From assembly GCA_903833055.1 (NCBI GenBank), contig CAILDU010000021.1, positions 1-46,923 on the forward strand: 46,923 bases of DNA, written 5' to 3'. Position 1 is the first letter of the stretch. Each line of letters opens with the position of its first letter. Made by a program: the position numbers and the translations under genes. Below are positions 1,607 through 38,058 of this stretch, in pieces. The DNA is from an uncultured Verrucomicrobia subdivision 3 bacterium (lineage in GTDB: Bacteria; Verrucomicrobiota; Verrucomicrobiia; Limisphaerales; UBA11358). The notes under the pieces were generated by a model, which saw only the letters and a list, made by a program, of their open reading frames with translations, had not been told where the DNA came from and searched no databases.

Positions 1607-1728
1607 GTTAAAGCTGGAGTAATTTCGACACAAGCCACCGCCTCGAAACCCGCCTGATGAAAACCAATATCCAGTCCACCACCGCCTGTGAATAGACTCA
1701 AAACTTTGATTGTCTTTTGACGCGCCAT
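1603..1728 (-). pseudogene. DNA (cytosine-5) methyltransferase remnant with large internal deletion
   Basis: Only 41 codons from ATG 1728. It encodes the N-terminus of a C5-cytosine methyltransferase, KVLSLFTGGGGLDIGFHQAG, which is motif I (the S-adenosylmethionine-binding loop) and the start of the Rossmann fold. Immediately after ACVEI the sequence ends TPALT and stop. The catalytic Pro-Cys motif and all later motifs are missing. The stop still overlaps the next start as ATGA, so the last few codons may be the original C-terminus. That would mean an in-frame internal deletion of roughly 300 codons, which is an inference. The product cannot methylate DNA. Confidence 0.7.
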
Positions 1729-1949
1729 GACGAACGAAGTGTGCGTCGTAAATTTATCAGCGTCAATCCGCGTTCGCCACCAGTAAAAATGAGCGCCCAT
1801 CGTTTGATTTGTTGGTTTTCAAGCAAGTCAAACCATAGTTATTCACAATTAGTAGCGGCACAACGCGGCTTGCGCACAACATATTGTGGTTTTCTCTTTA
1901 CACGAACCGTCAGCTTTGGTTGGCTAGTCCCAACAATTTTACACGAACC

Positions 1950-4900
1950 ATGTATCTTAAAAATCTCACGGTTTTCGGCTTCAAATCCTTTGCGGACAAG
2001 ACGGCGCTGAACTTTCAACCCGGCGTCACCGCCATCGTCGGCCCGAACGGCTGCGGCAAGTCCAACGTCTCGGACGCGATCCGCTGGGTGCTCGGCGAGC
2101 AGTCGGCGAAAGCTCTGCGCGGCGGCGAAATGGCCGATGTGATTTTCAACGGCACGGACGGACGCAAACCGATGGGCATGGGCGAAGTCTCGCTCACGCT
2201 CGGCGGCGTGGACGGCGAAAATCTTCGCGCGGCCGGCGTGGAAGTTGCCTACGACGAAGTGACGCTGACGCGCCGGATTTTCCGCGACGGCGGCAGCGAA
2301 TATTTTTTGAATCGCACGCCGTGCCGGTTGAAGGACATCCAGCAGTTGTTCATGGGCACGGGGGTCGGGCGCACGAGTTACAGCATCTTGGCGCAGGGTC
2401 ACATCACGCAGATTCTTTCCAGCAAGCCGGAAGACCGCCGGATGATTTTCGAGGAAGCCGCCGGCATCACGAAATTCAAGTCGCAGAAAAAAGAATCGCT
2501 GCGCAAACTGGAATACACCGAGCAAAATTTGTTACGCATCGCCGACACCATCAAGGAAGTGAAACGGCAAATCGGTTCGCTTCAGCGCCAGGCTGGCAAG
2601 GCGCGCCGCTACAAACAGATTTCGCAGGAGTTGCAGCATCTTGAAACGCAGTTGGCACGGCATCAGTTTGATATTTTGCAGGGTGAGATTTCCGAACGCC
2701 AGAATCTGGTCGAAAATTTGCGGAACGAAGTTGAGGCTGGCTCGAACGATGTGCTGCGTTTCGAAAATGAAATTTCTAAACTGCGCGAGTTGCTCTCCGA
2801 ACTGGAGCATGAAGTCGCGGCGCAGCAGCAGCGCGGATTAGAATTGAAGGCTGAAATTGATCGCAACGAAAGCCGCATTCAATTCAATGGCGAACGGCTT
2901 GCGGAAATCGAATCACAAAACGCCAAAGCGCTCGCGGAAATCGCGCAAGCGGAGGAGCGCTGCCACGCGGCCTCGGGTGAATTGATTTCCATCACGGAGC
3001 GGCTCGCGGTTGCCGAAGCTGCGTTGGAGCAACATCGTGAGAGTTTGCAGGCCAAGCGCGAAGGCTTGCAGCAAATCGAAAACAGTCAGCGTGAAAATCA
3101 GGAGCGTTTTCGGCAGGCACAGGCCACGGCGTTTGCGGCGGCGCAGGATTTATCGCGTCTCCGCAACGAAATCACCGCGCTCGATCTGCAAAAGCAGGGC
3201 AACTTGGTGCGCCTTGAAAAATTATCAGCGGAAAAAATCCAGTTAGAGGTGGAACGCACCGGATTGGATGTGCGCTTGCAGGAATTCACGGCCAGCGTCG
3301 AAGTGGAAAAGCTGAACGTTGCCACGACACGCGGTTCCGTTGAGCAACGTCAGAATCGTTTGCGCGAATTACAGGTGGAATTGCAGACGGCCTCAACCGA
3401 GCAGGATAAATTTTTGCACCAGCAATCAGACAAACGTTCGCGCCTCACGGTTTTGGAGCAGTTGGAAGGTTCGCACGAAGGCTTCGATGCGGGCGCGGTG
3501 GCCGCGTTGCGCCAATCACGTTCGGTCATCGGCTCGCTCGCGGATCGAATTCGCGTGCCGGATCAGTTTGTCACCGCCGTGGAGAATGCCCTCGGCCATA
3601 ATCTTCAGTTAATTCTCACCGAACAGCCGGCAAGCGCGCAGGAAATTCTGGCCGAACTCACGACCAACAAGTCCGGGCGCGCGAGCATCGCGGCGCTCGC
3701 CATTCAACAGTATCAGGACGAAAAGCAACTGGCCTTCGCCGGTGAAATGTCGCCCGCGGATAAAAATGCGGCGCCGGAAATGTTGCCGACGGGGAAGATT
3801 GTCCACGCGATGAGCGTGATTCACGCGGAACCGCAGGTGGAAGCACTTTTGAAATCGCTGCTTGGTCGCACGTTCATCGCGGCGGATTTGCCGACGGCGA
3901 CGGCGCAAATTCAGAACGGCCACGCGGGTTGCGATTTCGTGACGATGAGCGGCGAATTGCTGAACCGTCACGGTATTTACACGGGCGGTTATTTGAACAA
4001 GGGCAGCAATGGCAAAGCGCCGTCGTCCATTCTTGGTCGTAAGAATCAAATCACGGAACTGCAAGCGGAGTTAAACGAACTTCAACAGCTCGTCGAAGGC
4101 GCGAGCCAGAAGCGCGGCGAATTGTTGAGCGAGCAAACGGAATTGCAAGCGTCGTTGCAACAAGCGCAGACGGAGTTGCGCGTGCAGGAAGTGGCCATCG
4201 CCACGCGCGAAGGCGAGTTCAAGGCGTTGCAAAATTCGAATCGTCTGCTGCACCAGAAGATTGAGACGGTGGTCTTCGAGGTGCAAAGTTTGGCGGCGCA
4301 GGAGGCCGAAGGTTTGCAGAAGCGCGAGGCGCTCACCGCTCGGTTGAACGAACTTGAAGTGCGGGAACGCAGCGCGCAAGAACAAGTGCTCACGCTGACT
4401 ACGGAGTTGGAAAATTTACGCCAGCAACGCGACGCGGCGAATGCGGCGTTAACGGAAAGCAAAGTTGCGCTCGCCTCGGACGAACAGCTCGCGTCGTCGT
4501 TCAAACTGCAACTTACCTCGCTGGAACAGCGCATCCGCGAGTTATCCCAGATTGTGGAATTGCGTAAGAACGAGTGCTCCTCGTTTATTGTCCGGCAGGA
4601 GCAGGCGCAGACGGAGATTCAGGAATCGCGCAGTCAGATTGAGCGTTTGCAGCATGAGCGCACGCAGGTCAATGAGCAGGCGGCGGAACTGATCGGTCGC
4701 AAAAACGCGCAGGATGGCGAGATTGGGACGCGCGAAGAGAACTTGCGTTCGCAACGTAGTCGGTTGACGGAGTTGCAAAATTTGCGCGGCGGAATTGAAA
4801 TTGAGTTGGCGCAGAAAAATATGTCGGTGCAAAACCTGCGCGAAAAAGTTCAGCAGAAATATCATTTGAACCTCGACGACATTCGCAGCGAGTGCATCAC

Positions 4901-5680: not shown

Positions 5681-5995
5681 TTTCCAGATTGGATAAGATA
5701 ATTTCCTGACTTAAAAAATTGTTTTCTTAACCTAGAAAAGCATTTTTTACGTCTGAAAATTGATTTTCTACGTCTACAAGAAGAAGTTTTACGTCTAAAA
5801 ATTCAATTTTTACGTCTGTAAGCAGAAGTTTTACGTCTGAAAATTATTCTTTTACGCCTACGAGAAGAAGTTTTACGTCTGCAAAAAGGTTTTTCACGTC
5901 TAAAACATGATTTCCTAGACCTATAAAACGAATTTCTACGTCTAAAAAATCATTTTCTACGTCAAGATTGCGGCTTTCCAGACTGCAAAAATGTT
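5681..5995. repeat. Array of about 15 degenerate units with an exact 21-bp period
   Basis: Starting two bases after the smc stop, the sequence can be cut into consecutive 21-bp units with no insertion or deletion (starts at 5681, 5702, 5723 and so on to 5975). The core TTTTACGTCT or a close variant recurs at 5749, 5770, 5791, 5812, 5833, 5854, 5875, 5896, 5938 and 5959, always 21 apart, with degenerate forms at 5917 and 5980 and at the left end. Each unit begins with a T-tract and carries an A-rich stretch about 10 bp later. Between 5765 and 5890 a 42-bp higher-order repeat occurs three times, marked by an AGAAGAA-like stretch before GTTTTACGTCT. There are no spacers of the kind seen in a CRISPR. 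Function is unknown. Confidence 0.93.
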
Positions 5996-18479: not shown

Positions 18480-18537
18480 GGTAGGGCAAAGCTGCTGCTT
18501 TGCCTGATTGCGGCGGCACGGCAGCGCCCGCCCTACC
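18480..18537. repeat. REP-like nested palindrome
   Basis: A 58-bp imperfect palindrome with outer arms GGTAGGGC (18480-18487) and GCCCTACC (18530-18537) and an inner perfect hairpin GCAAAGC-TGCT-GCTTTGC (18486-18503). It sits between the convergent-side end of lpxB and the HIT gene. Its right arm supplies the TAG stop codon of lpxB. It could act as a transcription terminator or mRNA-stabilising hairpin, and its form suggests a dispersed REP-type element. Confidence 0.7.
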
Positions 18538-19696
18538 TGAACAAACTTAAAATCGCCTCCGCCGCACGGCTCGCCGCGCCGGGTTCACCAAGCGAAGAAA
18601 TGATTTTGGCGAGCTGCGCTTTGATTTGCGCGCGGTGCGTGGCGTTCTCCAACAACTCCAGCGCCGCGCGCGAAAGATTTTCCGGCGTCGCCTCGTTCTG
18701 GATGAACTCCGGATACACCGGCTCACCCGCGAGCAGGTTTGGCATCGTCAACGACTTCACCGTCACGATGCGTTTGGCGATTTGATACGTCAGCCACGAC
18801 GTTTTGTAGAGCGTCACCGTCGGCACGCCGAAGAACGCGCATTCCATCGTCACCGTGCCCGTCGAGGCCAGCGCGACGTCGCTTTCCGCCAGCGCCCACG
18901 GCAGTTCGCCGATTTGAATTTCTAGATTCGCGCCTAACGCTTTTGCGAGCGACACCAGCGCCGGATTCGGCAAAACCATTTTCGTTTTCGCCGTCGGCAA
19001 TTTTTCCTGAATTGTTTTCAGTGCCGCGAGCATGGTTGGCAGATGCCGTTGCAATTCACTCTTCCGACTGCCGGGCAGCAGAAGGATTTGCGATTTGCGA
19101 TTTACGATTGACGCGCCTGCTGCCAATCCGCTCGTAAATCGTAAATCGTCATTCGTAAATCTCCCAATCATCGGGTGGCCGACAAATTCCACGCGGAATT
19201 GCGGCACACGTTTGGCATACCAAGCCTTCTCAAACGGAAAGATGCTCAGCAGCAGATCATAATCGCGCGCGAGCTTGTCTGCGCGGCCCGGACGCGACGC
19301 CCAGACCTGCGGCGAGACGAACTGGACGATTTTCGGATCCCACTTGGAAAACGGATTTTCGCGGACGTATTTCTTGATGGCCGCGCCGAGGCGCAAATTG
19401 AACCCGCCAAAATCAATGCCGATGACCACGTCCGGTTTGCGCTCGATGGCGAGCGCGAGCAACTGGTTGAACAGCCGCCGGAATTTTAAAATATTTTTCA
19501 GCACGTCCGAGATGCCGATGACCGAATGTTGCGTCAGGTCGAAGGCCAGCTCCACGCCGGCGGCGGACATCTTCGCGCCGCCCGCGCCGAAGAATTGCGC
19601 GTCCGGCAACTGACCGCGCAAGGCGGACACCAATTCCGCCGCGAGCAGATCACCACTCGCCTCACCGGCGATGAGCATGAAGGTTTTCGGCTTCAC
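18533..19696 (-). CDS. lpxB: Lipid-A-disaccharide synthase
   Basis: A 387-residue GT19 glycosyltransferase that joins UDP-diacylglucosamine and lipid X to form the lipid A disaccharide at the inner membrane. The start is GTG 19696 (MKPKTFMLIAGEASGDLL). Conserved segments include GIDFGGFNLRLG, FVSPQVWASRPGR, FVGHPMIGRF, LLPGSRKSEL and the donor-site stretch ASTGTVTMECAFFGVPTV. Between FVGHP and LLPGSR, residues ~179-203 are encoded by a palindromic repeat (19088-19162) and look unlike other LpxB linkers. The stop is provided by the adjoining repeat at 18533. The natural upstream neighbour is probably the oxidoreductase at 21449-22483. The space between holds insertions and a second copy of this gene's first codons. 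Confidence 0.95.
   Translation of the reverse strand: MKPKTFMLIAGEASGDLLAAELVSALRGQLPDAQFFGAGGAKMSAAGVELAFDLTQHSVIGISDVLKNILKFRRLFNQLLALAIERKPDVVIGIDFGGFNLRLGAAIKKYVRENPFSKWDPKIVQFVSPQVWASRPGRADKLARDYDLLLSIFPFEKAWYAKRVPQFRVEFVGHPMIGRFTNDDLRFTSGLAAGASIVNRKSQILLLPGSRKSELQRHLPTMLAALKTIQEKLPTAKTKMVLPNPALVSLAKALGANLEIQIGELPWALAESDVALASTGTVTMECAFFGVPTVTLYKTSWLTYQIAKRIVTVKSLTMPNLLAGEPVYPEFIQNEATPENLSRAALELLENATHRAQIKAQLAKIISSLGEPGAASRAAEAILSLFR
19088..19162. repeat. Iterated GATTTACGA-type hairpin repeat inside lpxB, in frame
   Basis: The left part is built from GATTTGCGATTTGCGATTTA and the right part from CGTAAATCGTAAATCG. Their reverse complements match closely, so the region folds into a long imperfect hairpin. 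It encodes about 25 residues of LpxB (FTNDDLRFTS...IVNRKSQI) without breaking the frame. This iterated TTTACGAT pattern looks like an intergenic dispersed repeat that has landed in a permissive loop. Confidence 0.75.
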
Positions 19697-19706
19697 GGGT
19701 TTATTT

Positions 19707-19738
19707 TAACGCAGAGACGCGAAGACGCGGAGAAATTT
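19707..19738. repeat. Dispersed CAGAGACGC-type repeat upstream of lpxB
   Basis: A run of short units of the type GCAGAGACGCGAAGACGCGGAGA. It belongs to the same family as the pair at 20589-20614 and 21424-21449, though more diverged. It lies in the corresponding position relative to lpxB codon 1 as the 20589 copy does relative to the duplicated lpxB start. Confidence 0.65.
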
Positions 19739-19756
19739 ACGAAATGCTTTGCCTTC

Positions 19757-19852
19757 GTTTCAGCCACGGAGTGGCATGCGATAGTAGCCCACAGCGATAG
19801 CTGTGGGAAAGCGTCCAACAAAAATCCAAGCCCCGGCAGGGGCGAAAGAAAT
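19757..19852 (+). repeat. REP-like unit, 3' side of the RAYT transposase
   Basis: A 96-bp unit starting GTTTCAGCCACGGAGTGGC with three successive hairpins (GCCAC/GTGGC; CCCACAGC/GCTGTGGG; GCCCCG/CGGGGC-type). The same unit, also 96 bp and in the same orientation, lies at 20333-20428 on the other side of the transposase. The transposase stop codon follows immediately at 19854-19856. Confidence 0.8.
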
Positions 19853-19853
19853 T

Positions 19854-20306
19854 TCATTCCCACAAAAACCTTTCGTCGTATTCAATTTCATGCCGTTTGA
19901 GGAACGTTACAAATTCCTCTCGAAACGAAATCTTGCGATGATGTTCTTCCTGATTGGCGATATATTTTTCAACTTCAACTAAACTTGAATGGCTCACGCT
20001 GAATGCTCCGTAGCCAATTTGCCAGGCGAACATTTGCTGGTTTGGAAAATTCTTATGAATCCAACCCGACGAATCCGCCTTCAACTCGCGCATCAAATTG
20101 GACAGCGAATGTTTGGCCGCGAGCGATGCGAGAATGTGGACGTGATCCGTCGGGCCGTTGATGATAAGTGCCTTGCCGTCGTGTGTGCGAATGATGCTGC
20201 CAAGATATGGAAACAAACGCGATTTCAAATCCGCGTCGAGCAATGGTCGCCGGTTTTTGGTGCTGAAAATAATGTGCGTCAGCAGGTGCGTGAAAGTATG
20301 CGCCAT
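19854..20306 (-). CDS. REP-associated tyrosine (Y1, IS200/IS605-type) transposase
   Basis: A 150-residue Y1 HUH transposase. It begins MAHTFTHLLTHIIFSTKNRRP, the conserved core strand of this family. The metal-binding HUH motif is HVH at residues 55-57 (PTDHVHILA) and the catalytic tyrosine is Tyr115 in VEKYIANQEEHH. There is no accessory tnpB gene. It is flanked by direct copies of a 96-bp hairpin-rich unit plus one inverted derivative, the layout of RAYT proteins that mobilise REP-like sequences by cutting single-stranded hairpins. It sits between lpxB and a duplicated lpxB start. The frame and key residues are intact, so it may be active. Confidence 0.9.
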   Translation of the reverse strand: MAHTFTHLLTHIIFSTKNRRPLLDADLKSRLFPYLGSIIRTHDGKALIINGPTDHVHILASLAAKHSLSNLMRELKADSSGWIHKNFPNQQMFAWQIGYGAFSVSHSSLVEVEKYIANQEEHHRKISFREEFVTFLKRHEIEYDERFLWE

Positions 20307-20332
20307 AAATTAAAAGCTGCGGAGCAGGTTTT

Positions 20333-20428
20333 GTTTCAGCCACGGAGTGGCGCGAGATAGTAGCCCACGGTGACAACCGTGGGAACGAGTTGTAAAACGG
20401 TTTAAGCCCCGGATGGGGCGAAAGAAAC
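20333..20428 (+). repeat. REP-like unit, 5' side of the RAYT transposase
   Basis: A 96-bp partner of the unit at 19757-19852. It starts GTTTCAGCCACGGAGTGGC, then CCCACGG/CCGTGGG and GCCCCGGATGGGGC hairpins. The first part of the gap to the transposase start (20307-20332) contains GCTGCGGAGCAG, a remnant of the inverted derivative's terminal hairpin. Confidence 0.8.
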
Positions 20429-20433
20429 GGGTT

Positions 20434-20542
20434 GTCGAACGGTGGTTTTCGGTCGCCCCCGCCGGGGCTTTGGAGATTTGTGGGTGATTAAACCCATAGC
20501 TGGCGCTATGGGCTACTATCGTGCGCTGCTCCGCAGCTAAAG
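20434..20542 (-). repeat. Inverted REP-like derivative next to the duplicated lpxB start
   Basis: Read on the minus strand this begins with GCTGCGGAGCAGC, then a CCCATAGC/GCTATGGG hairpin and AAAGCCCCGGCGGGGGCGAC. It is the same class of element as the 96-bp units but inverted and diverged, so the pair 20333-20428 / 20434-20542 forms a REP doublet. It directly abuts the lpxB-derived duplication at 20543. Confidence 0.7.
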
Positions 20543-20580
20543 CACCGGCGATGAGCATGAAGGTTTTTGGTTTCACGGTT
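20543..20580 (-). pseudogene. Duplicated 5' end of lpxB (about 11 codons plus leader)
   Basis: Bases 20543-20580 match 19663-19700 with only three mismatches. They encode GTG AAA CCA AAA ACC..., that is MKPKTFMLIAG, the exact start of LpxB. The two mismatches inside the coding part are synonymous (AAA/AAG and CCA/CCG). After residue 11 the frame continues into the REP-like sequence and is meaningless. This looks like a displaced original start of lpxB left behind when the transposase/REP module was inserted with a small duplication. Confidence 0.8.
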
Positions 20581-20588
20581 TAAGTTTT

Positions 20589-20614
20589 GCCACAGAGGCA
20601 CAGAGACACAGAGA
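20589..20614 (+). repeat. 26-bp inverted repeat, 3' boundary of the HNH gene cassette
   Basis: This reads GCCACAGAGGCACAGAGACA and six more bases. Its reverse complement matches 21424-21449 with one mismatch in 26. It ends four bases beyond the HNH stop codon (20618-20620). It is a member of the CAGAGACRC repeat family. Confidence 0.85.
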
Positions 20615-20617
20615 AAT

Positions 20618-21424
20618 TCATGGAATCAATTTATCAAGTGGATGACATTTGCCGCCACGATGAATCATGGCGTGGCAATTTGCACAAACGACAGCCAAAT
20701 CATCAAGTTTTGTCTCGCTGGGTTTTGTTCGGTCGGCGAGCGGTTTGAGGTGATGAACTTGGGCGTAATCCCGGCCAAGCTCGCCATAAACAGTTTCAAA
20801 ATCAAAACTGCATTTGGGCACTTCACATTTCAATTTACCGTTTCCAATCTTTCTAGCTTCGGCAACTTTGGCATCTCGAAGTGACTGCTCACGTTTGCGG
20901 TGTCTGACGAGCGTCAATTTTTCTGCACCTTCCATCGCCGACAATTCCGCGTCGGTTGTTACAACGGCTAACGAAGTTTTGCCAACGTGCGCTGCCCATT
21001 TCTCTTCCAGTTCAGTCGCAACTTCATCAGGAATTTGAATGCCCGATGATTGTGGTGTCCAATTGAAATCGGCCAATCTTCCTTTTATGAGTTCCTCCAT
21101 TCCAAGCGGAGCATCAACTGGCGGGTTGAGCAATCGTTCCCATTCTCCATCCACGCCAAGACATTTTTCACCAGCCGCAGCTTTGTCGGCGTCCCAATGT
21201 AATCGTAAATGCGGAGCAGTTGTTACCCAGCCAGAACCAATAATTCCTTTTGGCTCTTCCGAAACTCGCATCAAAAAAATCCTGTCTCCGGGCTGGATTT
21301 TTTTCGTGTTGCCGCAACTCCAACTTGCAATAACTCCTTTGCCCGCCAATGTCTCGGCGCTCGTTTCAGCAAGATTATCCCAATGCCATCTTTTCGGATT
21401 CCATGTCAGCAAATAGGTTTTCAT
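20618..21424 (-). CDS. HNH endonuclease with N-terminal EVE/PUA-like domain (type IV restriction candidate)
   Basis: A 268-residue protein. The N-terminal ~140 residues (MKTYLLTWNPKRWHW; CGNTKKIQPGDRIFLMRV; GIIGSGWV) resemble EVE/PUA-like modified-base readers. The C-terminus is an HNH nuclease with Cys200/Cys205, HH at 224-225 and CANCHAMIH at 247-255. Reader-HNH fusions of this kind are known or predicted to cut DNA carrying modified cytosines, a type IV restriction role, which I infer here. The gene is bracketed by a 26-bp inverted repeat: one copy fills the gap from the gfo stop to this ATG, the other lies just past its stop. It splits gfo from lpxB and looks acquired. Confidence 0.78.
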   Translation of the reverse strand: MKTYLLTWNPKRWHWDNLAETSAETLAGKGVIASWSCGNTKKIQPGDRIFLMRVSEEPKGIIGSGWVTTAPHLRLHWDADKAAAGEKCLGVDGEWERLLNPPVDAPLGMEELIKGRLADFNWTPQSSGIQIPDEVATELEEKWAAHVGKTSLAVVTTDAELSAMEGAEKLTLVRHRKREQSLRDAKVAEARKIGNGKLKCEVPKCSFDFETVYGELGRDYAQVHHLKPLADRTKPSETKLDDLAVVCANCHAMIHRGGKCHPLDKLIP

Positions 21425-21449
21425 CTCTGCGTCTCTGTGCCTCTGTGGC
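21424..21449 (-). repeat. 26-bp inverted repeat, 5' boundary of the HNH gene cassette
   Basis: This is the partner of 20589-20614 with one mismatch. On the minus strand it runs from the stop codon of the oxidoreductase gene (TAG 21451-21449) to the A of the HNH start codon at 21424. It therefore forms the entire 24-bp intergenic space and the leader of the HNH gene. Confidence 0.85.
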
Positions 21450-22483
21450 TAACTTTTTTGATTCTGAATCTGCCGCGTGATTTCAAAGGCCAAGTCCAGC
21501 GCGCGTTTACCGGCTTCGCCGCTGACCATCGGGGTTTGCTGCGCGCGGACGCATTCGACGAAATGTTGCAGCTCCAACTTGAGAGGCTCGTCTTTGTTGA
21601 TGGGCACCGGCTCGCGCACGATTTTCCGCCCGGCAAATTCGCTGACGATGGCGGAGTCTTTGCCGATGCCGAGCTTGGCGGCGAGAATCTTTTTGATGAA
21701 CGGCGTTTCTTCCTCGCCATCGCGCGCGACGCGATAGAGAAATCCTTCCTGCACGCGGTAATCGAGCGAGATGTAGCAGGGATTCGTCGGGCCGCTGAAC
21801 ACGCGGATTTTTCTCATGCGCTCGGGGCTGATGCGGCTGGCGGTGAGATTCGCCACGCAGCCATTGGCGAAACGCAGGCGCGCGTTGGCGATGTCCTCGC
21901 TCTTGCTCAACACGGGAATGCCCACGCCTTCGACGCTGACGACGGGCGACTTCACAAAGGCGAGCACGATGTCGAGATCGTGAATCATCAAATCGAGCAC
22001 GACGCCGATGTCCATCGAGCGGGCAGGGTAGGGCGAGAGGCGGTGGCATTCGATGAACTTGGGTTCAGTCGCCGCGCTCTGGAGAAATTTGAAAACGGGA
22101 TTGAACCGCTCGACGTGGCCGACTTGCAGGACGAGATTTTTTTTCTGCGCGAGTTCGCAAAGTTCGGCGGCCTGCGCGGATTCGCTGGTCATCGGTTTCT
22201 CGACGAGAACGTGTTTGCCCAATTCCAACAATTGTTTGGCGATATCAAAATGCGTCGTGGTGGGCGTGGCGATGTTCAGCGCATCGCTCGCGGCGGCAGC
22301 TTCGGCGACGGAATTGAAAACGTGCAGCTTATGTTTCTCCGCGATTTTGCGGGCGGTTTCCGCGTGCGCGTCGTAAATGCCGGTGAGTTCGACCTCGCCA
22401 GCGGCGTGGAGTTCGGAGTAGATGCGGGCGTGATGTTGACCGAGCGAGCCGGTGCCGAGAACGGCGACTTTGACTTTTGCCAT
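21449..22483 (-). CDS. Gfo/Idh/MocA-family NAD(P)-dependent oxidoreductase (lipid A sugar pathway candidate)
   Basis: A 344-residue oxidoreductase. ATG 22483 gives MAKVKVAVLGTGSLGQHHARI with the Rossmann GxGxxG motif; the frame is open to 22537 but less family-like. The conserved EKPMT (cofactor/catalytic lysine) and a YPARSMDIGVVLDLMIHDLD segment with the active-site HD are present. Genes of this family often sit beside lpxA/lpxB, and some (GnnA) oxidise UDP-GlcNAc for amide-linked lipid A. Since lpxB lies downstream on the same strand, a lipid A role is plausible but inferred; no gnnB aminotransferase gene is in the window. Its stop abuts the HNH cassette repeat. Confidence 0.85.
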   Translation of the reverse strand: MAKVKVAVLGTGSLGQHHARIYSELHAAGEVELTGIYDAHAETARKIAEKHKLHVFNSVAEAAAASDALNIATPTTTHFDIAKQLLELGKHVLVEKPMTSESAQAAELCELAQKKNLVLQVGHVERFNPVFKFLQSAATEPKFIECHRLSPYPARSMDIGVVLDLMIHDLDIVLAFVKSPVVSVEGVGIPVLSKSEDIANARLRFANGCVANLTASRISPERMRKIRVFSGPTNPCYISLDYRVQEGFLYRVARDGEEETPFIKKILAAKLGIGKDSAIVSEFAGRKIVREPVPINKDEPLKLELQHFVECVRAQQTPMVSGEAGKRALDLAFEITRQIQNQKS

Positions 22484-25822: not shown

Positions 25823-27433
25823 TTAGTGGTGCGTCGCGGCAGAAATGGCGGCTAGCGATTTTTTTGCTTCGGTGTAATCAGGCTTGAGGCGCAAGGCTTC
25901 GGTGTATTGCGCTTTGGCTTCATCCAGTTTGCCAGCGGCGGCGAGGGCTTTGCCATAATAGCAATGGATTACCGGATCCGTCGGGACGAGCTTGGCGGCC
26001 ACACCAAGATGTTCGCTGGCTTCGGCGGCGCGGCCTTGTCGCAAAAGCGCGAGACCGAGATCCCATTGGCCATTGGGAAAAGTCGGCGCGATGCGGACGG
26101 ATTCAAAAAAAAGCGTCAGCGCAGCTTCGTTCAAGCCTACGGTTTCCAATTCGCTGCCGAGATAAGCGTCGGCGGTGTAATTGTCCGTGGTGACTTCGAC
26201 GGTATGCAGAAAAAGTTTCAAGCTGTTTTGCCAGTGCGATAATTGGAATGAAGTGACAACAAGACACGCGGCCAGCGCGGTGGCACTTGCGAGTAAGGCA
26301 AATTCTTTTCCGCGCGGCTGCGCGGCCAGCAGTTCGTTTACGCCCCAGACAATCACGATGAACAGACCGATGCTCGGCAGATACGAATAGCGGTCAGCCA
26401 TCGCCTGCGGGCCGACTTGCACCAGGCCGATGGTTGGAACCAGTGTTCCCACAAAATAAAACCAGCCGAAGAACAAGAAGGGATTTTGGCGCGCCCGCAA
26501 AATTACAGTTGCCGACCAGACCAATAATAAAATCGCCGCTGCGAGCACGAACCACAGCGGCCAGTGATTTTGATACGGATAAATAATTGCGAGATCCGTC
26601 GGCCAAAAAGTTTTCGAGAGGTAACGCACATACGATACGAGCGCGTTGGCGAGGCGAACGGGCAAGGGCAGGGCGTCTGCCGACCACGTCGCGCCGCCCG
26701 CTTTTTGCGCGATGAAATTGATGCAGCTTTCCGCCAGCGTCAGCGCAAAAAATGGAATCTTCTCCACGACCAATTTTTTCAAGTCCGTCGTCCGCCCTCC
26801 GTCATCCGTCAGCCGTCGCAGCGGCCAGAAGTCCGCGAGCAACAATACAAACGGCAGTGTCACCACCATCGGTTTGGACATCAGGCCGCACGCAAATAAA
26901 AACAGTGTCAACAAATACGCGGTCGCGCCCGGCTTCTTCACATACCGCGTATAAGCCAGCAAAGTCAGTAGCCAGAAAAATGCGCTCAAGACATCTTTGC
27001 GTTCCGCCACCCACGCGACCGATTCGACGCGGAGCGGATGCCATGCGAACAAAGCCGCCACCAGCGCGCTGCGCCACAGCGCGCCGGTTGCGCGGTTCAA
27101 CCACGCAAATAACAACAGCACATTTGCGATGTGAAAAAATACATTCGTCAGGTGATGACCGGCGGGATTTACGCCATACAACTGGCAGTCTAGCATGTGC
27201 GAGAGCCATGTCAGCGGGAACCAGTTACTCGCAATGATGTTGGTGAACGCCCATTTCACGCCCGCCCACGTCAAGCCCGCCTGCACCACTGGATTGGCTG
27301 TCACATATTGATTGTCGTCCAGCGAGATGAAGTCGTGATGCGCCACTGGCAGATACAAAACCAAGGTTCCCATCGCCAAAACGAAACCGATGGCGAGCAG
27401 ACGAAAATTATTTTTCAAAATGTTCAAAGTCAT
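25823..27433 (-). CDS. Polytopic membrane protein with C-terminal TPR repeats (paralogue 2)
   Basis: A 536-residue membrane protein of the kind often annotated as a tetratricopeptide or PMT-like glycosyltransferase. I chose ATG 27433 (MTLNILKNNFRLLAIGF); a TTG at 27454 is possible. About ten hydrophobic helices are followed by two or three TPR motifs at the C-terminus (AYLGSELETVG..., CYYGKALAAAGKLDEAKAQY). The first luminal loop has DDNQYVTANP and later HPLRVESVAWVAERKDVLS, both shared with the upstream paralogue. A lipid-linked sugar transferase role is possible but unproven. A short dispersed repeat (26783-26819) is in frame just before VVEKIPFF. It starts 21 bp after the paralogue, so the pair arose by tandem duplication. 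Confidence 0.8.
   Translation of the reverse strand: MTLNILKNNFRLLAIGFVLAMGTLVLYLPVAHHDFISLDDNQYVTANPVVQAGLTWAGVKWAFTNIIASNWFPLTWLSHMLDCQLYGVNPAGHHLTNVFFHIANVLLLFAWLNRATGALWRSALVAALFAWHPLRVESVAWVAERKDVLSAFFWLLTLLAYTRYVKKPGATAYLLTLFLFACGLMSKPMVVTLPFVLLLADFWPLRRLTDDGGRTTDLKKLVVEKIPFFALTLAESCINFIAQKAGGATWSADALPLPVRLANALVSYVRYLSKTFWPTDLAIIYPYQNHWPLWFVLAAAILLLVWSATVILRARQNPFLFFGWFYFVGTLVPTIGLVQVGPQAMADRYSYLPSIGLFIVIVWGVNELLAAQPRGKEFALLASATALAACLVVTSFQLSHWQNSLKLFLHTVEVTTDNYTADAYLGSELETVGLNEAALTLFFESVRIAPTFPNGQWDLGLALLRQGRAAEASEHLGVAAKLVPTDPVIHCYYGKALAAAGKLDEAKAQYTEALRLKPDYTEAKKSLAAISAATHH
26783..26819. repeat. Iterated GTCCGTCNTCCG repeat inside TPR paralogue 2, in frame
   Basis: A run of short units (GTCCGTCGTCCGCCCTCCGT, CATCCGTCAGCCGTCGC) encoding about 12 residues (RRLTDDGGRTTD) in a loop before VVEKIPFF. 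The paralogue upstream carries a different dispersed repeat in the equivalent loop. Confidence 0.6.
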
Positions 27434-27454
27434 TTGGACATTTTTTAAATTCAA

Positions 27455-29140
27455 TTACGGATGCGCGGCCAAAGCTTCGGCCAAATGGACGCGCGCGGGA
27501 GTAAAGTCCGGGCGCAGTTTCAACGTCGCTTCAAAACAGTGCGCGGCGTCGGCCCAGCGTTTGTTTTTCAAAAAGAAAACGCCGAGGTTGAATTGCGCGT
27601 CGGGATTGTTGGGGTCGTAGTGCGCGGCGGCGGCGAGATGCTCGAACGCCTCGTCCTTGTAACCGAAGCCGATCAAGGCCAGGCCGAGATTGTATTGACT
27701 GTTGGCGAAGCGCGGCTCGATTTTTACGGCGTCGCGGTAAAGCACGAGCGCGCGGGCGTTGTCGCCATTTTTTTCAAACGTTTTGCCGAGTGCATTTTCG
27801 GCGACGTAATTATTCTGCGTCACTGCCAGCGTGTGCAAAAATAAATTTACACTGCTGCGCCAATACGAGATTTGCAGCGACGTCGCCAGCACGCAGCCAA
27901 TCAAAGCGCAGCCGCCGATAAGCGCGAGCAGCGTTTTTCCATTCGGACGTGTCGCGATAAGTTCTGCCGCGCCCCAGACGAGCACGACGAGCAGGCCGAT
28001 GCTCGGAATGTAATCATAGCGGTCGGCCATGGCTTGCGCGCCGACTTGCACGAAGCCGATGACCGGCACGAGCGTGCCGAGAAACCAAAACCAGCCGGAC
28101 GCCAGCCACGGTTCGCGCCGGAGCAACATGAGCGCGAGCGTGGAAAACATAATCAACATCAACACCGAGCAGGCGATGGCGGCGACCGGCCAGTGATAAA
28201 CGTAGGGATAAACGAGCGCGAGATCGGTCGGCCAAATGGTTTTGGCGAGGTAACGCGCGTAAGCGACAGGAACATTGCCGAGGCGGCTCGACCATTCGAC
28301 GGGGCTGACTGCGCCCGCGCTGCGCTGCGCCAGAAACGTCACCGCACACAACGCGAACATTAGCAGGAAGAAGGGAATCTTTTCGACAAGCAGCCGGTTG
28401 AAAGTTGAAAGTTGAAAGTTGCAGGTTGGCGTGACCGAACTTGCAACTTTCAACCCGCAACCTTTAACCCGTCCGAGCGGCCACACGTCCACCAACAATA
28501 GCGTGAATGGCAGCGTCACCGCCATCGGCTTAGACAACATCGCCAGCGCGGAGGAAACTAGTGCGAGAATGTAAAATAGTGATGAGTTATGAGTGATGAG
28601 CGGGGCGGCTGGCTTGTCACTCATAACTCGTAACTCATCACTACCCTTCGCATAGCTGGCGTAAGCCAGCAGCGTCAGCAGCCAGAAAAAAGTGCTCAAC
28701 ACATCTTTGCGTTCCGCGACCCACGCGACCGATTCCACATGAAATGGATGCCACGCAAAGATCGCGGCGACGAACGCGCTGCGCCATTCCAAGCCGGTGG
28801 CGGAACGCAAAAACGCAAATAACAACAAGGTGTTTGCGATGTGGAAGAGAACATTGACGAGGTGATGCCCACCGGCGTTCAGGCCGAAAAGCTGGCAGTC
28901 CAATTCATGCGAGAGCCAGCTCACCGGATGCCAGTTGCCGACATGAATACCGTTGAACGCCCAGACAAAGCCGTGCCACGTCAGCCCGGCTTGCGTGACG
29001 GGATTTTCCGAAATGTATTCCGGATCATCAAATTCAATGAAGGGGAAATGGGTGACCGGCCAGTAAAGTGCCAGTGTGCCGAGCGCGAGGGTGAGACACG
29101 CGAAGATGAAAAACTTTTTGTCCGGGCGCGCGGCGGTCAT
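27455..29140 (-). CDS. Polytopic membrane protein with C-terminal TPR repeats (paralogue 1)
   Basis: A 561-residue relative of the next gene, starting at ATG 29140 (MTAARPDKKFFIFACLTLAL). It shares the loop pattern DDPEYISENPVTQAGLTW, HPFHVESVAWVAERKDVLS and MADRYDYIPSIGLLVVLVWG, with about ten hydrophobic segments and three or more C-terminal TPR motifs (NYVAENALGKTFEKNGD; NSQYNLGLALIGFG; AQFNLGVFFLKNKRW). Such proteins are predicted to be inner-membrane glycosyltransferase-like enzymes, but activity is unproven. Two palindromic repeats are inserted in frame, encoding about residues 167-188 and 224-249, neither present in the paralogue. It begins right after the PHP phosphatase gene (3 bp gap). 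Confidence 0.8.
   Translation of the reverse strand: MTAARPDKKFFIFACLTLALGTLALYWPVTHFPFIEFDDPEYISENPVTQAGLTWHGFVWAFNGIHVGNWHPVSWLSHELDCQLFGLNAGGHHLVNVLFHIANTLLLFAFLRSATGLEWRSAFVAAIFAWHPFHVESVAWVAERKDVLSTFFWLLTLLAYASYAKGSDELRVMSDKPAAPLITHNSSLFYILALVSSALAMLSKPMAVTLPFTLLLVDVWPLGRVKGCGLKVASSVTPTCNFQLSTFNRLLVEKIPFFLLMFALCAVTFLAQRSAGAVSPVEWSSRLGNVPVAYARYLAKTIWPTDLALVYPYVYHWPVAAIACSVLMLIMFSTLALMLLRREPWLASGWFWFLGTLVPVIGFVQVGAQAMADRYDYIPSIGLLVVLVWGAAELIATRPNGKTLLALIGGCALIGCVLATSLQISYWRSSVNLFLHTLAVTQNNYVAENALGKTFEKNGDNARALVLYRDAVKIEPRFANSQYNLGLALIGFGYKDEAFEHLAAAAHYDPNNPDAQFNLGVFFLKNKRWADAAHCFEATLKLRPDFTPARVHLAEALAAHP
28396..28470. repeat. Iterated AGTTGAA hairpin repeat inside TPR paralogue 1, in frame
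   Basis: The left arm is GGTTGAAAGTTGAAAGTTGA and continues AAGTTGCAGG; the right arm is built of TTGCAACTTTCAACCCGCAA and CCTTTAACCC, the reverse complement in imperfect form. It encodes part of the loop CGLKVASSVTPTCNFQLSTF. This is an iterated repeat of the kind more usual between genes. Confidence 0.75.
28578..28642. repeat. ATGAGTK-type inverted repeat inside TPR paralogue 1, in frame (empty form)
   Basis: The left arm is AGTGATGAGTTATGAGTGA (28578-28596) and the right arm is the reverse complement with one extra 7-base unit (28617-28642); the loop is about 20 bases. The arms are made of heptamers ATGAGTG and ATGAGTT. It encodes GSDELRVMSD and PLITHNSSLF without disturbing the frame. 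The same repeat family brackets the S23 gene at 36258-36683. Confidence 0.85.
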
Positions 29141-34746: not shown

Positions 34747-36234
34747 ATGCTCAAGCCGCTTTCATCCGACCGATGGAATTTTTCCACGGCGGCGCATTTG
34801 CTGAACCGCGCCGGCTTCGGCGGTTCGCCAGCGGATATTCAAGCACTGTGCGACCTCGGCCCGGACAAGGCGGTGTCGCATTTGCTGGACTACGAATACA
34901 TCCACGACCCCACGACGGATCCTGATTGGGCGAAACCGAATCCCGAAGAAGTTCAACGGTTCCGCGATGGCATCCGCAATGCCACGACGCCGGAGGAAAA
35001 GAAAAAATTGCAGCAGGAGCAGCAGCAACTCATCCAGCGCCGGATGCAGGAACTGCGCGGCTGGTGGCTGCAGCGCATGGCGCGCGGGCCGCGACCGTTT
35101 CAGGAAAAAATGGTTTTATTCTGGCACGGCCACTTCGCCACGAGCGTCGAGAAGGTTCGCAATCCATATTATATGTGGCGGCAGAACGAATTATTCCGTC
35201 GCCTCGCCACCGGCAACTGGCAGCAATTGCTTACGGATGCCGGTCAAGACCCGGCGATGCTCGTCTGGCTGGATCAGGCGCAAAGCCGCAAGGATCATCC
35301 AAATGAAAATTTCGCGCGCGAGGTCATGGAACTGTTTGCGCTGGGCGAAGGTCACTACACGGAACATGACATCGCCGAGGCCGCGCGTGCGCTGACCGGC
35401 TGGTCGCTGGAGCCGCAGGAACAAAAATATATTTACCGGCCGCGCATCCATGACGACAGCGACAAAACAATTTTCGGTCAGACGGGAAATTTCGACGGCG
35501 AACAATTTATCGCGATGATTGTCGCGCAGCCGCAGTCGGCCAAATTTATTACGGCGAAAACTTGGAATTATTTTTCAGGCTCGGTTCCGTCGCCGGAATT
35601 GAGCAACGCGCTGGCGGTGAACTTTCGCGCGAATGGAAATATTTTTAAGCCGTTCCTGCGCGCGATGTTTCGCAGTGAGGAATTTTATGCGCCGGACATC
35701 GTTCGCAATCAGGTGAAAAGTCCGGTGCAATGGCTCATCAACAGCGTGCGCGTCCTCGAATGTGATTTGCCGCCGACGCTCGTGAGCTGGGGAATGTTGC
35801 GGCAGCTCGGCCAGGACATTTTTGCGCCGCCGAACGTCAAAGGCTGGGATGGCGGCGTCACTTGGATTACCACCAATTCTTTGCTCACGCGCTACAACGA
35901 CGCGCAGGCGTTGGTGGAAGGACAGTTGCCGCCGCTGACGGCGGGCGATTTTGCGCGCAAGGCCGGCGGCGGCGGTGGCGATAAAGCGATGAAGGCAATG
36001 CAGCGAATGCGACTAGGCGGCGTGAATGTAGAAAAAATTCTTACGCCCGAAGAGCGCGCGGACAAGGCCTCGATTGTCGCCGCGCTGGAACATCGTTTGT
36101 TTCAAACCTCGCTCAAGAGTGATCAGGAACAGACGCTGCGCGAATTTCTCGATTCCAAAACCAAAATGTCCAACGCGGACATCGTCACGACCGTGCGCCT
36201 GATGATGTCCACGCCGGATTATCAAGTGACGTAA
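34747..36234 (+). CDS. DUF1800 family protein
   Basis: A 495-residue DUF1800 protein. The start MLKPLSSDRWNFSTAAHLLN followed by RAGFGGSP is typical, as are FWHGHFATS, ENFAREVMELFALGEGHYTE and ARALTGWSL. The family is abundant in Planctomycetes and Verrucomicrobia and is nearly always paired with a DUF1501 gene, which here follows at 36706. The pair is thought to act in the cell envelope or periplasm, but activity is unknown. No clear signal peptide is seen. A four-helix-bundle gene bracketed by repeats lies between the two genes and its left repeat starts six bases after this stop. Confidence 0.92.
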   Translation: MLKPLSSDRWNFSTAAHLLNRAGFGGSPADIQALCDLGPDKAVSHLLDYEYIHDPTTDPDWAKPNPEEVQRFRDGIRNATTPEEKKKLQQEQQQLIQRRMQELRGWWLQRMARGPRPFQEKMVLFWHGHFATSVEKVRNPYYMWRQNELFRRLATGNWQQLLTDAGQDPAMLVWLDQAQSRKDHPNENFAREVMELFALGEGHYTEHDIAEAARALTGWSLEPQEQKYIYRPRIHDDSDKTIFGQTGNFDGEQFIAMIVAQPQSAKFITAKTWNYFSGSVPSPELSNALAVNFRANGNIFKPFLRAMFRSEEFYAPDIVRNQVKSPVQWLINSVRVLECDLPPTLVSWGMLRQLGQDIFAPPNVKGWDGGVTWITTNSLLTRYNDAQALVEGQLPPLTAGDFARKAGGGGGDKAMKAMQRMRLGGVNVEKILTPEERADKASIVAALEHRLFQTSLKSDQEQTLREFLDSKTKMSNADIVTTVRLMMSTPDYQVT

Positions 36235-36240: not shown

Positions 36241-36268
36241 GTGATGAGTGATGAGTTATGAGTGATAA
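36241..36268 (+). repeat. ATGAGTK-type repeat, left boundary of the S23 gene cassette
   Basis: Heptamer units GTG-ATGAGTG-ATGAGTT-ATGAGTG-ATAAGC. The ATG of the S23 gene (36258) is one of the heptamer starts, so the repeat supplies the start codon and the first residues MSDK. Bases 36253-36268 are complementary to part of 36668-36699 with about one mismatch. Confidence 0.85.
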
Positions 36269-36683
36269 GCTTTCAAATCCGGGCGATGCGAGTCGGGATA
36301 AACCCACGCAAGGTTATCGCGATTTGCTTGTCTGGCAAAAGAGTATGGCTTTGGTAAAGGACATTTACAAAATCACGGCGGGTTTTCCATCGGAAGAAAA
36401 GTTTGGCCTGACGTCACAAATGCGACGGGCGGCGGTTTCGGTTCCGTCCAACATTGCCGAAGGGCAGGCGCGCAATACCACCGGCGAGTTTGTGCAATTC
36501 AACTCTTACGCGGAAGGCTCGCTGGCCGAACTGGACACGCAACTGACGCTCGCGGTTGAACTGGATTTTTTACCAGCGGAAAAAGCTGACTTGGGCTTGG
36601 ATTCAATCGCCGAATTACGACGGATGCTGAATGGCCTTCGCCGGTCAATCACTGGTCAAAGTCCCCCAGCTCGTAACTTATAA
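36258..36683 (+). CDS. Four-helix-bundle protein (S23 / 23S rRNA intervening-sequence family)
   Basis: A 141-residue protein of the S23/TIGR02436 group. The signature is YRDLLVWQKSMALVKDIYKI (residues 20-39) and LTSQMRRAAVSVPSNIAEG (51-69), followed by two further helices. Relatives are found inside intervening sequences of 23S rRNA genes and among Avd-like accessory proteins of diversity-generating retroelements. They form basic pentameric bundles that bind nucleic acid. Here the gene lies between DUF1800 and DUF1501. Its ATG lies in the left repeat and its TAA stop in the right repeat, so it looks like a mobile cassette rather than a functional partner of its neighbours. Confidence 0.88.
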   Translation: MSDKLSNPGDASRDKPTQGYRDLLVWQKSMALVKDIYKITAGFPSEEKFGLTSQMRRAAVSVPSNIAEGQARNTTGEFVQFNSYAEGSLAELDTQLTLAVELDFLPAEKADLGLDSIAELRRMLNGLRRSITGQSPPARNL

Positions 36684-36699
36684 CTTGTCACTCATAACT
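36668..36699 (-). repeat. ATGAGTK-type repeat, right boundary of the S23 gene cassette
   Basis: On the minus strand this reads AGTTATGAGTGACAAGTTAT and continues AAGTTACGAGCT, an inverted relative of 36241-36268. The TAA stop of the S23 gene (36681-36683) is within it. It ends seven bases before the DUF1501 start codon. Confidence 0.85.
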
Positions 36700-36705: not shown

Positions 36706-38058
36706 ATGAAAAACGAAATCACCTTGCAGACGCGGCGCGAATTTCTCCGCCGCACCGTTCTCGGCAGTTCGCTCGCGTGGACGATGCCGATGTTTCTTTC
36801 TAACACGTTCACCGCGTTGCAAGCCGAAGCCGCCGACTCCGCGATTCAAACGCCCACCGGCAAGGACGCGACGATTCTAGTCGTGTTACAAATGGCTGGC
36901 GGTAATGACGGACTCAATACCGTCGTGCCTTACGCCAATGATTTTTATCACAAGGCGCGTCCGAAAATTGGCTTGAAGGCAGATGACGTTTTGAAAATCA
37001 ATGGCGACATCGGGCTGCACGGTTCGATGAAAGGTTTCAAATCGCTTTACGATGCCGGTCAACTTTCCGTGATTCAAGGCGTCGGTTATCCGAACCCGAA
37101 TCGCTCGCATTTTCGCTCCACCGAAATCTGGCAGACCGCGAGCGACTCCAATCGCGTGGAGAAATACGGCTGGGTTGGCCGCTACTTCGACTCCGCCTGC
37201 GCGGGCGCCGACCCGACCGTGGGCGTGGTGATTGGCAACCAGTTGCCGCAATCGTTTTTTGCCGCGAAGCCGAAAGGAATTGTTTTTAACAATCCGCAAA
37301 ACTATCGCTTTATGGCGAACGGCGCGGCCACCGAGGAATCATATAAAAAATTAAATGAACTCGAAATGTCCAGTCCGCTGCCGGACGGTGGACCGAGCAT
37401 GTCGGCTGACGACAACGCCAATTCCGGCGGCAGCATCGCCATGCTGCCGGCGGGAATGCCGATGACCGGCGGACGCGCCATTGATTTTATTTCCCGCACC
37501 GCACTCGACGCGCAGCACAGTTCCGACGAAGTTCGCGCCATCGCTGCGAAGGTGCAGAACACCGCCGTTTATCCCGGCTCGCAACTTGGCGGCTCGCTCA
37601 AGATGGTCGCCAAACTCATCGGCGGCGGTTTGCCCACGCGGATTTATTACGTCTCGCAAGGCGGCTACGACACGCACACGAATCAGGTTAATTCCCAGCA
37701 GCGCTTGCTCGGCGACCTCGGCGATTCTGTGAAGGCGTTCACCGACGACATGAAAGCGCAGGGCAACATGGGTCGCGTGCTCGTGATGACCTTCAGCGAA
37801 TTTGGCCGGCGCGTTTCCGAAAATGCGAATGGGGGAACCGATCACGGAGCCGCCGCGCCCATGTTCATCATCGGCAACAAGGTGAAGGCCGGATTGCTCG
37901 GCCATTATCCGAGTCTCGCGCCGGCGGATTTATTTCAAGGCGACGTGAAATACAATGTGGACTTCCGCAGCGTCTATGCGGGCGTGCTGGAAAACTGGCT
38001 CAAGACCAAGAGCGCGCCCATCCTCGGCAAACAATTCGCGCCGCTGCCGGTGGTGTGA
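36706..38058 (+). CDS. DUF1501 family protein with twin-arginine signal
   Basis: A 450-residue DUF1501 protein. ATG 36706 gives a Tat-type leader with RREFLRRTVLGSS (residues 10-22), so it should be exported folded. Family stretches include VVLQMAGGNDGLNTVVPY, RSHFRSTEIWQTAS, YYVSQGGYDTHTNQ, MTFSEFGRRVSENANGGTDH. The metal-type residues (Asp, His) suggest relation to the alkaline phosphatase/sulfatase fold, but no activity is established. It normally follows a DUF1800 gene directly; here a 426-bp S23 gene with flanking repeats separates them. The in-frame extension to 36631 overlaps the S23 gene and is not used. Confidence 0.92.
   Translation: MKNEITLQTRREFLRRTVLGSSLAWTMPMFLSNTFTALQAEAADSAIQTPTGKDATILVVLQMAGGNDGLNTVVPYANDFYHKARPKIGLKADDVLKINGDIGLHGSMKGFKSLYDAGQLSVIQGVGYPNPNRSHFRSTEIWQTASDSNRVEKYGWVGRYFDSACAGADPTVGVVIGNQLPQSFFAAKPKGIVFNNPQNYRFMANGAATEESYKKLNELEMSSPLPDGGPSMSADDNANSGGSIAMLPAGMPMTGGRAIDFISRTALDAQHSSDEVRAIAAKVQNTAVYPGSQLGGSLKMVAKLIGGGLPTRIYYVSQGGYDTHTNQVNSQQRLLGDLGDSVKAFTDDMKAQGNMGRVLVMTFSEFGRRVSENANGGTDHGAAAPMFIIGNKVKAGLLGHYPSLAPADLFQGDVKYNVDFRSVYAGVLENWLKTKSAPILGKQFAPLPVV

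What the first reader, a model, noticed from the sequence alone, without database searches (positions are those of the whole stretch)
36241..36699. S23 four-helix-bundle gene whose start and stop codons lie in an inverted repeat, inserted between DUF1800 and DUF1501
Seen: ATGAGTK heptamer repeats lie at 36241-36268 and, inverted, at 36668-36699. The ATG of the S23 gene is in the left repeat and its TAA is in the right one. Known: S23 proteins occur in 23S rRNA intervening sequences flanked by complementary ends that form a stem, and related Avd proteins serve diversity-generating retroelements. DUF1800 and DUF1501 are normally adjacent. Inference: this is an intervening-sequence-like mobile cassette living in an operon. 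The transcript could fold with the gene in the loop and might be processed out, or the repeats are the transposition ends.
Basis: partly seen in the sequence, partly recalled or inferred. Interest (0 to 1): 0.75.

Follow-up and report, generated by a model that had tools for sequence, protein, structure and literature searches.

The report
Repeat-armed mobile S23 gene cassette
The window holds a small gene (S23) lodged between two operon genes and bracketed by mirrored runs of a 7-letter DNA repeat; the same layout, with different 7-letter words, brackets most S23 genes tested in many kinds of bacteria and some archaea, which makes it look like a widespread small mobile element.

Summary
Confirmed, and one case of a general rule. 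All 7 S23 (PF05635) genes found in this genome sit between inverted 7-mer arrays. In its relatives 82 of 94 S23 genes do (foreign flank pairs 4.4%; other genes 2/32, 12/265, 11/266); in named genomes of many phyla 59 of 73. ATGAGTK is only one word: the 7-mer differs between S23 lineages, while the period (7, sometimes 8), mirror arrangement and C-poor inward strand persist. Arms and gene behave as one unit: close S23 relatives at unrelated sites often share the 7-mer, and in cyanobacterial plasmids homology between sites stops at the arms. Of 22 orthologous DUF1800|DUF1501 junctions, 15 lack any array, 2 carry S23, 5 carry gene-less arrays. The best-resolved insertion (98% identical empty plasmid) has a clean 5-bp target duplication; one more is plausible, four comparisons show none. 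With two near neighbours, S23 runs with both in 110 cases, against both in 5, mixed in 31. It is under purifying selection; several S23-rich genomes have no detected reverse transcriptase. Best reading: an IVS-like mobile cassette outside rRNA. How it moves, and whether RNA is processed, is not shown.

The parts
36241..36268 (+). Left arm: tandem 7-mers (RTGAGTK); the S23 start codon lies inside it
36258..36683 (+). S23 / four-helix-bundle gene, 141 aa (PF05635, TIGR02436; weak Avd match)
36668..36699 (-). Right arm: the same 7-mer family inverted; the S23 stop codon lies inside it
34747..36234 (+). DUF1800 gene, upstream neighbour
   Evidence: junctions without the cassette
36706..38058 (+). 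DUF1501 gene, downstream neighbour (start at 36706 by its orthologues)
28578..28642 (.). Gene-less hairpin of the same 7-mer family (ATGAGTK), in frame inside ORF 27455-29140(-) (TPR-type protein by eye)
28395..28471 (.). Gene-less 7-mer hairpin (GTTGAAA), in frame inside the same ORF
26784..26818 (.). Single 7-mer array (TCCGTCA), in frame in the similar ORF 25823-27454(-)
19083..19161 (.). Gene-less 7-mer hairpin (GATTTGC / TCGTAAA), in frame in a variable loop of an lpxB-like ORF 18533-19696(-)

Best explanation
This is a small mobile cassette, an S23 gene between two inverted arrays of about four to five 7-bp units, that inserts as one unit between the genes of operons. Shown here: arms and gene go together; relatives have the junction without it; one well-resolved insertion elsewhere carries a 5-bp target duplication; where its neighbours agree in direction the cassette nearly always runs with them; gene-less hairpins of the same build occur in the same genomes. 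Inferred: the S23 pentamer binds the stem formed by the arms, in single-stranded DNA or in RNA, and lets host enzymes cut and copy it to a new place. The gene-less hairpins would be non-autonomous derivatives. The arms may differ freely in sequence because only their period and mutual complementarity matter; slippage and arm-to-arm templating would keep the two sides matched.
For: Arms at 82 of 94 S23 loci vs 49 of 1115 foreign pairs and 2/32, 12/265, 11/266 other genes; 59 of 73 in named genomes of many phyla and 16 of 17 in viral contigs vs 41 of 1063. Period 7 in 66 of 82 and 63 of 75. Non-syntenic S23 pairs share the 7-mer in 4 of 4 at identity 0.8 or more, 35% of 48 at 0.6-0.8, and at most 1% in any bin below 0.5. 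DUF1800|DUF1501: 11 of 22 genomes with 4-8 nt, 4 with 19-44 nt and no array, 2 with S23 (profile check), 5 with gene-less arrays; at least 5 changes of state on a genus tree. Trichormus plasmid vs 98% identical empty plasmid: GTAAT on both sides of the cassette, once in the empty site. About 418 bp of element shared by three unrelated plasmid sites, homology ending at the arms. Both neighbours in the S23 direction 59 vs both opposite 2 (of 80), and 51 vs 3 (of 66). dN/dS 0.03-0.24 in 22 same-site pairs. As orthologues diverge (S23 identity under 0.77) the two arms of a locus resemble each other more than their orthologues in 13 of 14 pairs.
Against: No enzyme is encoded: S23 matches no transposase, nuclease or polymerase family at E 0.001. 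Of six occupied/empty comparisons one has a clean 5-bp duplication, one a plausible one, four none. Arms were not found at 12 of 94, 14 of 73 and 1 of 17 loci at the threshold used. Some S23 cassettes stay at one site in several species under purifying selection, more like a kept gene than a mover. The link between S23 presence and gene-less arrays is strong within the order but weak across the phylum (18 in 302 kb vs 11 in 390 kb; 8 of 20 vs 7 of 20 genomes with an array). One genome without a detected S23 has clear 7-mer hairpins (L339). Occupancy of the DUF1800 site is not clearly clustered or scattered on the tree (46 of 500 shuffles need as few changes). Binding of S23 to the arms is not tested.
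Confidence: 0.6

Rival explanations
1. An RNA-level intervening sequence in an mRNA: the arms pair in the transcript, RNase III cuts the stem, and S23 is a passenger or an RNA chaperone, as proposed for rRNA intervening sequences.
For: Both neighbours in the S23 direction 110, both opposite 5, mixed 31; arms pair in the folded transcript, z -3.1; size (median 469 nt) and 7-mer stem like the Coxiella IVS (428 nt, GACAGAT repeats at the RNase III site; PMC4990558 passages).
Against: Arm mismatches are not biased to G.U (65 vs 81; 75 vs 76). Excision from an mRNA would separate the cistrons of an operon. No transcript data here.
Confidence: 0.3
2. S23 is a resident host gene and the arrays are local slippage products or terminators that accumulate at gene ends.
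For: Purifying selection at fixed sites; gene-less arrays without S23.
Against: Orthologous junctions without the cassette; arms specific to S23 lineages at unrelated sites; element boundaries at the arms in plasmids; most other genes lack arms.
Confidence: 0.12
3. The arms belong to the target: 7-mer hairpins exist first and S23 inserts into their loops, as rRNA intervening sequences replace helix tips.
For: At DUF1800|DUF1501 the host end CAAGTGACGTGA resembles the 7-mer AGTGACG, and five relatives have gene-less arrays of that family there.
Against: At CysD|CysN, UbiX|UbiA and Pta|HisC the gene-less occupants mostly carry 7-mers unrelated to the S23 arms there (by eye); close S23s at unrelated sites often share the 7-mer; empty plasmid sites hold no array.
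Confidence: 0.1
4. A retroelement of the DGR kind: S23 acts like Avd with a reverse transcriptase supplied in trans.
For: Weak matches to bAvd (E 3.9e-6) and DivGenRetAVD (E 5.6e-9), both below the curated cut-offs; sense orientation.
Against: No PF00078 match in G000 (7 S23), G001 (97% complete, 14 S23), G005 (96%, 11 S23) or G013 (6 S23); 16 of 40 genomes searched, own included, have one. Draft genomes, so absence is not proof.
Confidence: 0.06

Closest known systems
23S rRNA intervening sequence (IVS) with an S23 ORF (Coxiella, Leptospira)
   Same: Same protein family, similar length, complementary ends forming a stem, 7-mer repeats in the stem of the Coxiella IVS (PMC4990558, passages read).
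   Different: Not in rRNA: sits between protein genes of operons; a different 7-mer in each S23 lineage; gene-less forms, some in coding frames.
Rickettsia palindromic elements and other MITEs
   Same: Short palindromic, gene-less forms inserted in frame in protein genes (PMC10969869, passages read).
   Different: Arms are tandem 7-mers with lineage-specific sequence, and a gene-bearing form of the same build exists.
REP/RAYT (REPtron) system
   Same: Small palindromes plus one gene thought to move them (recalled).
   Different: RAYT is a Y1 transposase (recalled); S23 has no match to an enzyme family here, and the arms are tandem arrays.
Avd of diversity-generating retroelements
   Same: Related four-helix-bundle protein (weak Avd match; homology suggested in PMC10053308, passage read).
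   Different: No reverse transcriptase detected in this genome; template and variable repeats not looked for.
Heptanucleotide STRR repeats of cyanobacteria
   Same: Dispersed 7-mer arrays (recalled; search listing only).
   Different: No link to S23 seen in that listing; in the cyanobacterial plasmids read here 7-mer-type arrays frame S23 genes.

Membership tests
23S rRNA intervening sequence (IVS) | Encodes an S23 (PF05635) protein | tested here: met
   PF05635 E 6.9e-39
23S rRNA intervening sequence (IVS) | Lies inside an rRNA gene | tested here: not met
23S rRNA intervening sequence (IVS) | Complementary ends that can form a stem | tested here: met
23S rRNA intervening sequence (IVS) | Cut out of the transcript by RNase III | not testable with these tools
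   No RNA data
Insertion sequence / transposon | Terminal inverted repeats | tested here: met
Insertion sequence / transposon | Target-site duplication | tested here: inconclusive
   Clean 5 bp in 1, plausible in 1, none clear in 4 plasmid comparisons; at the window's own site no duplication is evident and the empty relatives are diverged
Insertion sequence / transposon | Encodes a transposase | tested here: not met
   Only S23/Avd-type matches
Diversity-generating retroelement | Reverse transcriptase | tested here: not met
   No PF00078 match in G000, 86% complete
Diversity-generating retroelement | Template and variable repeats | not tested
   -
REP/RAYT | Y1 transposase next to the palindromes | tested here: not met
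   The gene between the arms is S23

The most novel reading that the evidence does not exclude
A pan-prokaryotic class of mobile element whose terminal repeats are free in sequence but fixed in period (about 7 bp), polarity and mutual complementarity, moved by host enzymes with the help of a non-enzymatic pentameric S23 protein. The 23S rRNA intervening sequences would be its rRNA branch, and in-frame 7-mer hairpins its non-autonomous offspring that also reshape proteins.
Probability: 0.45. Interest if true: 0.92.

Novelty: new variant of a known kind. Interest (0 to 1): 0.8.

Why it matters
S23 proteins are known as passengers of rRNA intervening sequences, and their function and mobility have stayed open (PMC4990558, passages). 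If S23 genes are the cargo of a common small mobile element, that explains why they turn up as odd genes in unrelated operons: PMC3936711 (passages) reports 18 in cas loci, often with cas4 or cas6, and cas6-S23-cas4 is seen here on two plasmids. It also gives a test bed with empty sites, gene-less forms and defined ends for a question debated for IVSs, whether they are transposons. Terminal repeats that keep period and complementarity while their sequence turns over would be an unusual mode of end recognition.

Tried and rejected
Considered and rejected: (1) ATGAGTK as a universal S23 signal: arms differ by lineage, and the pattern is not above its backwards control in the own genome (5 vs 4). 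(2) Arms derived from the host target: suggested by DUF1800|DUF1501, not upheld at three other junctions. (3) Selection on RNA pairing through G.U pairs: no excess. (4) A resident reverse transcriptase: not detected in several S23-rich genomes. (5) Unit length set by the S23 protein: period 7 against 8+ has a weak tree signal (15 changes vs shuffled mean 19.0; 1 of 300 shuffles as low) and no pairwise signal below 60% identity. (6) S23 in rRNA among the fetched loci: none of 196 with two probe hits.

Led nowhere: phage records, no S23 match at E 1e-6; Anabaena cas6-S23-cas4 against a 99.4% identical relative, which holds another element at the site; paper searches on repeat vocabulary and GxxExxY.

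One search listed more S23 matches than I fetched and cut its own list: the relatives set is 96 loci, taken mainly from the top. Of 23 genomes with a DUF1800 hit (31 searched), 22 were read; G041, hit in two pieces, was not. In one search's group table genomes not scored at the site count as unoccupied; the figure of 5 changes is from the 22 scored. The stretches were chosen by hand, some on contigs known from earlier hits; two of the arrays (L314 17182, L318 18591) lie in the lpxB loop already known, and three of the four S23-free genomes belong to other families than the S23-bearing ones. In one search one of the 38 arrays is the finding's own left arm. Same-site pairs share ancestry and are not independent; 7 of 29 dN/dS pairs were saturated, and 2 more with L019 were skipped for a stop. 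The window's phylum is not known to me, so the named loci may include it.

Full report
The finding. The window's S23 gene (36258-36683) starts inside a left array of 7-mers (36241-36268) and ends inside the inverted right array (36668-36699). PF05635 matches at E 6.9e-39; the neighbours are DUF1800 and DUF1501. In isolation the arm pair is only moderately unusual: score 27, where 2.9% of foreign flank pairs reach 26. Gene names below other than S23, DUF1800, DUF1501, GxxExxY (PF13366) and those taken from record annotation are by eye or recall.

Own genome and relatives. The genome (2.75 Mb, 86% complete) has seven S23 matches. All seven are framed by inverted 7-mer arrays, each with another 7-mer (read by eye). 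PF05635 occurs in 35 of 40 genomes, own included. From these I took 96 loci (including the seven own) with 98 S23 genes; 94 have 200 nt on both sides. The left flank aligned to the reverse complement of the right flank scores 24 or more in 82 of 94, against 49 of 1115 left-right pairs from different loci. A first set of other genes gave 3 of 30. A larger set with the same geometry gave 2 of 32 (window), 12 of 265 (S23-bearing genus genomes) and 11 of 266 (S23-free genomes). The best period is 7 in 66 of 82, 8 in 13, 9 in 2 and 6 in 1.

Further away. Eighty named loci from many bacterial and a few archaeal groups (best 80 of a capped scan) and twenty viral contigs gave 59 of 73 and 16 of 17 with arms, foreign pairs 41 of 1063. 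The period is 7 in 63 of 75 and 8 in 9; the strand reading inward has more G than C in 67 of 75 and in 73 of 82 in the relatives (left arm). Over both sets the cassette is 469 nt outer end to outer end (10-90%: 419-561), with matched arms of 30 nt (19-39). The published Coxiella IVS is 428 nt with a 28-bp stem and GACAGAT repeats at its RNase III site (PMC4990558, passages).

Arms travel with the gene. Among S23 pairs without shared neighbours, arm similarity is present in 4 of 4 pairs at 80% or more protein identity, 35% of 48 at 60-80%, 12% of 74 at 50-60%, and at most 1% in any bin below 50% (3127 pairs). In cyanobacterial plasmids about 418 bp (arms plus gene) are shared at 78-81% DNA identity by the Nostoc, Trichormus and Aulosira sites, whose surroundings do not match, and the similarity stops at the arms.

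Arms turn over together. In 33 same-site pairs, the two arms of a locus resemble each other more than their orthologues in 1 of 19 pairs with S23 identity 0.77 or more, but in 13 of 14 pairs below it. So the word changes on both sides. The mismatches are not enriched for G.U-compatible changes (65 vs 81; 75 vs 76), which speaks for matching at the DNA level rather than selection on an RNA stem.

Empty sites. In 22 genomes of the genus the DUF1800|DUF1501 junction has 4-8 nt in 11, 19-44 nt without an array in 4, an S23 cassette in 2 (G000, G013; profile check), and gene-less 7-mer arrays in 5, one of them single-armed. On a tree from four proteins the state changes at least five times. The CysD|CysN, UbiX|UbiA and Pta|HisC junctions show empty junctions, S23 cassettes and gene-less hairpins side by side (read by eye); at UbiX|UbiA two S23 families with different 7-mers occur, both confirmed by profile.

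Insertion boundaries. Trichormus plasmid C against a 98% identical Nostoc linckia plasmid: the empty site has GTAAT once, the occupied site has GTAAT on both sides of the cassette. In a Nostoc plasmid operon two of three occupied copies have TTCTA on both sides and the third has one change; the reading is plausible but the word resembles the repeat. The second Nostoc site, Calothrix, Nostoc edaphicum and Aulosira show no clear duplication. So a 5-bp duplication is suggested, not established.

Orientation and selection. Where both neighbours are near, both run in the S23 direction in 59 of 80 loci of the relatives, both opposite in 2, mixed in 19; in the named set 51 of 66, 3 and 12. Ordinary neighbour pairs are same-strand in 42 of 65 and 89 of 121. 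dN/dS at shared sites is 0.03-0.24 in 22 measurable pairs; the window's gene against its G013 orthologue gives 0.077.

Gene-less arrays. Within the order, strict 7-mer arrays occur at 1.0-1.1 per 100 kb in four S23-free genomes, like other periods that are not multiples of three, and at 5.0-12.8 in five S23-bearing ones (the window is one of these samples and includes the finding). Across the phylum the contrast is weaker: 18 in 302 kb of 20 S23-bearing genomes, 11 in 390 kb of 20 S23-free ones, five of the latter in one cluster of genuine hairpins in a genome with no detected S23. Arrays in S23-bearing genus genomes resemble S23 arms more than their reversed versions do in 31 of 38. A variable loop of LpxB, readable in 28 of 30 genomes, carries in many of them in-frame 7-mer arrays with different words.

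Mechanism. S23 has no enzymatic family match; its only solved relative found by sequence is 2gsc, five chains in one entry, described as a homopentamer in PMC4990558 (passage). I infer that a pentamer holds the arm stem and that host enzymes do the cutting and copying. A resident reverse transcriptase seems not to be needed for upkeep: no PF00078 match in G000, G001, G005 and G013, which carry 7, 14, 11 and 6 S23 genes. Binding, transposition and RNA processing are untested.

Prior reports. In the listings (a library without most subscription journals; searches show only the top of longer lists) I saw no paper that links S23 genes outside rRNA to flanking 7-mer arrays. The Coxiella paper notes heptamers in one rRNA IVS. 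PMC3936711 (passages) records S23 genes in cas loci; the passages do not mention repeats. PMC11270868 (passages) records S23 in rRNA insertions of CPR bacteria. PMC8700078 (passages) lists four helix bundle genes among those unique to one Arthrospira strain.

Noticed in passing
L256-L285 (30 loci, relatives): GxxExxY (PF13366) genes are also framed by inverted iterated arms: 28 of 28 loci with enough flank, foreign pairs 59 of 756. Build differs: many have an outer TTTAACC-like end and 7-mers spaced by 1-4 nt. Both neighbours run in the gene's direction in 19 of 26, both opposite in 0.
   Followed up: partly
window 20588-21450: A 268-aa HNH-like gene (20618-21424, minus; HNH by eye, no family search) sits between inverted 8-mer arrays CACAGAGG, of the build seen around GxxExxY.
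   Followed up: no
window 19662-20580: A transposase-like ORF (19854-20306, minus; IS200/RAYT type by recall) with palindromes around it; about 40 bp of the lpxB start are repeated on the far side. Its flanks score 36 in the arm test.
   Followed up: no
lpxB loops in L137, L139, L143, L149: A different, REP-like palindrome (TAGGAGCCGAGGTAACGAGGCTC ... in L149, relatives of it in the others) occupies the same loop of LpxB in four genomes.
   Followed up: no
L339 (G107) 230-3132: Three sets of GTAAATG arrays, two of them clear inverted pairs, between genes that look phage-like by eye, in a genome with no S23 found.
   Followed up: partly
L457 1113-1420 (Anabaena sp. 90 plasmid): About 300 bp of AGGTGACAGGG-type repeats before an S23 gene between cas6 and cas4; inverted copies lie inside the start of cas4.
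   Followed up: no
L455 and L458 (Nostoc plasmids): The same operon carries different S23 cassettes one gene apart in two plasmids, so each gives the other's empty site.
   Followed up: yes
window 5732-5963: 21/42-bp tandem repeats (TTTTACGTCTGAAAATTGA...), TRF score up to 221.
   Followed up: no
L314 14761-16571, L319 12331-12777: Three control genes with strongly matching inverted flanks (scores 60, 53, 53); not examined further, perhaps cassettes of another kind or insertion sequences.
   Followed up: no
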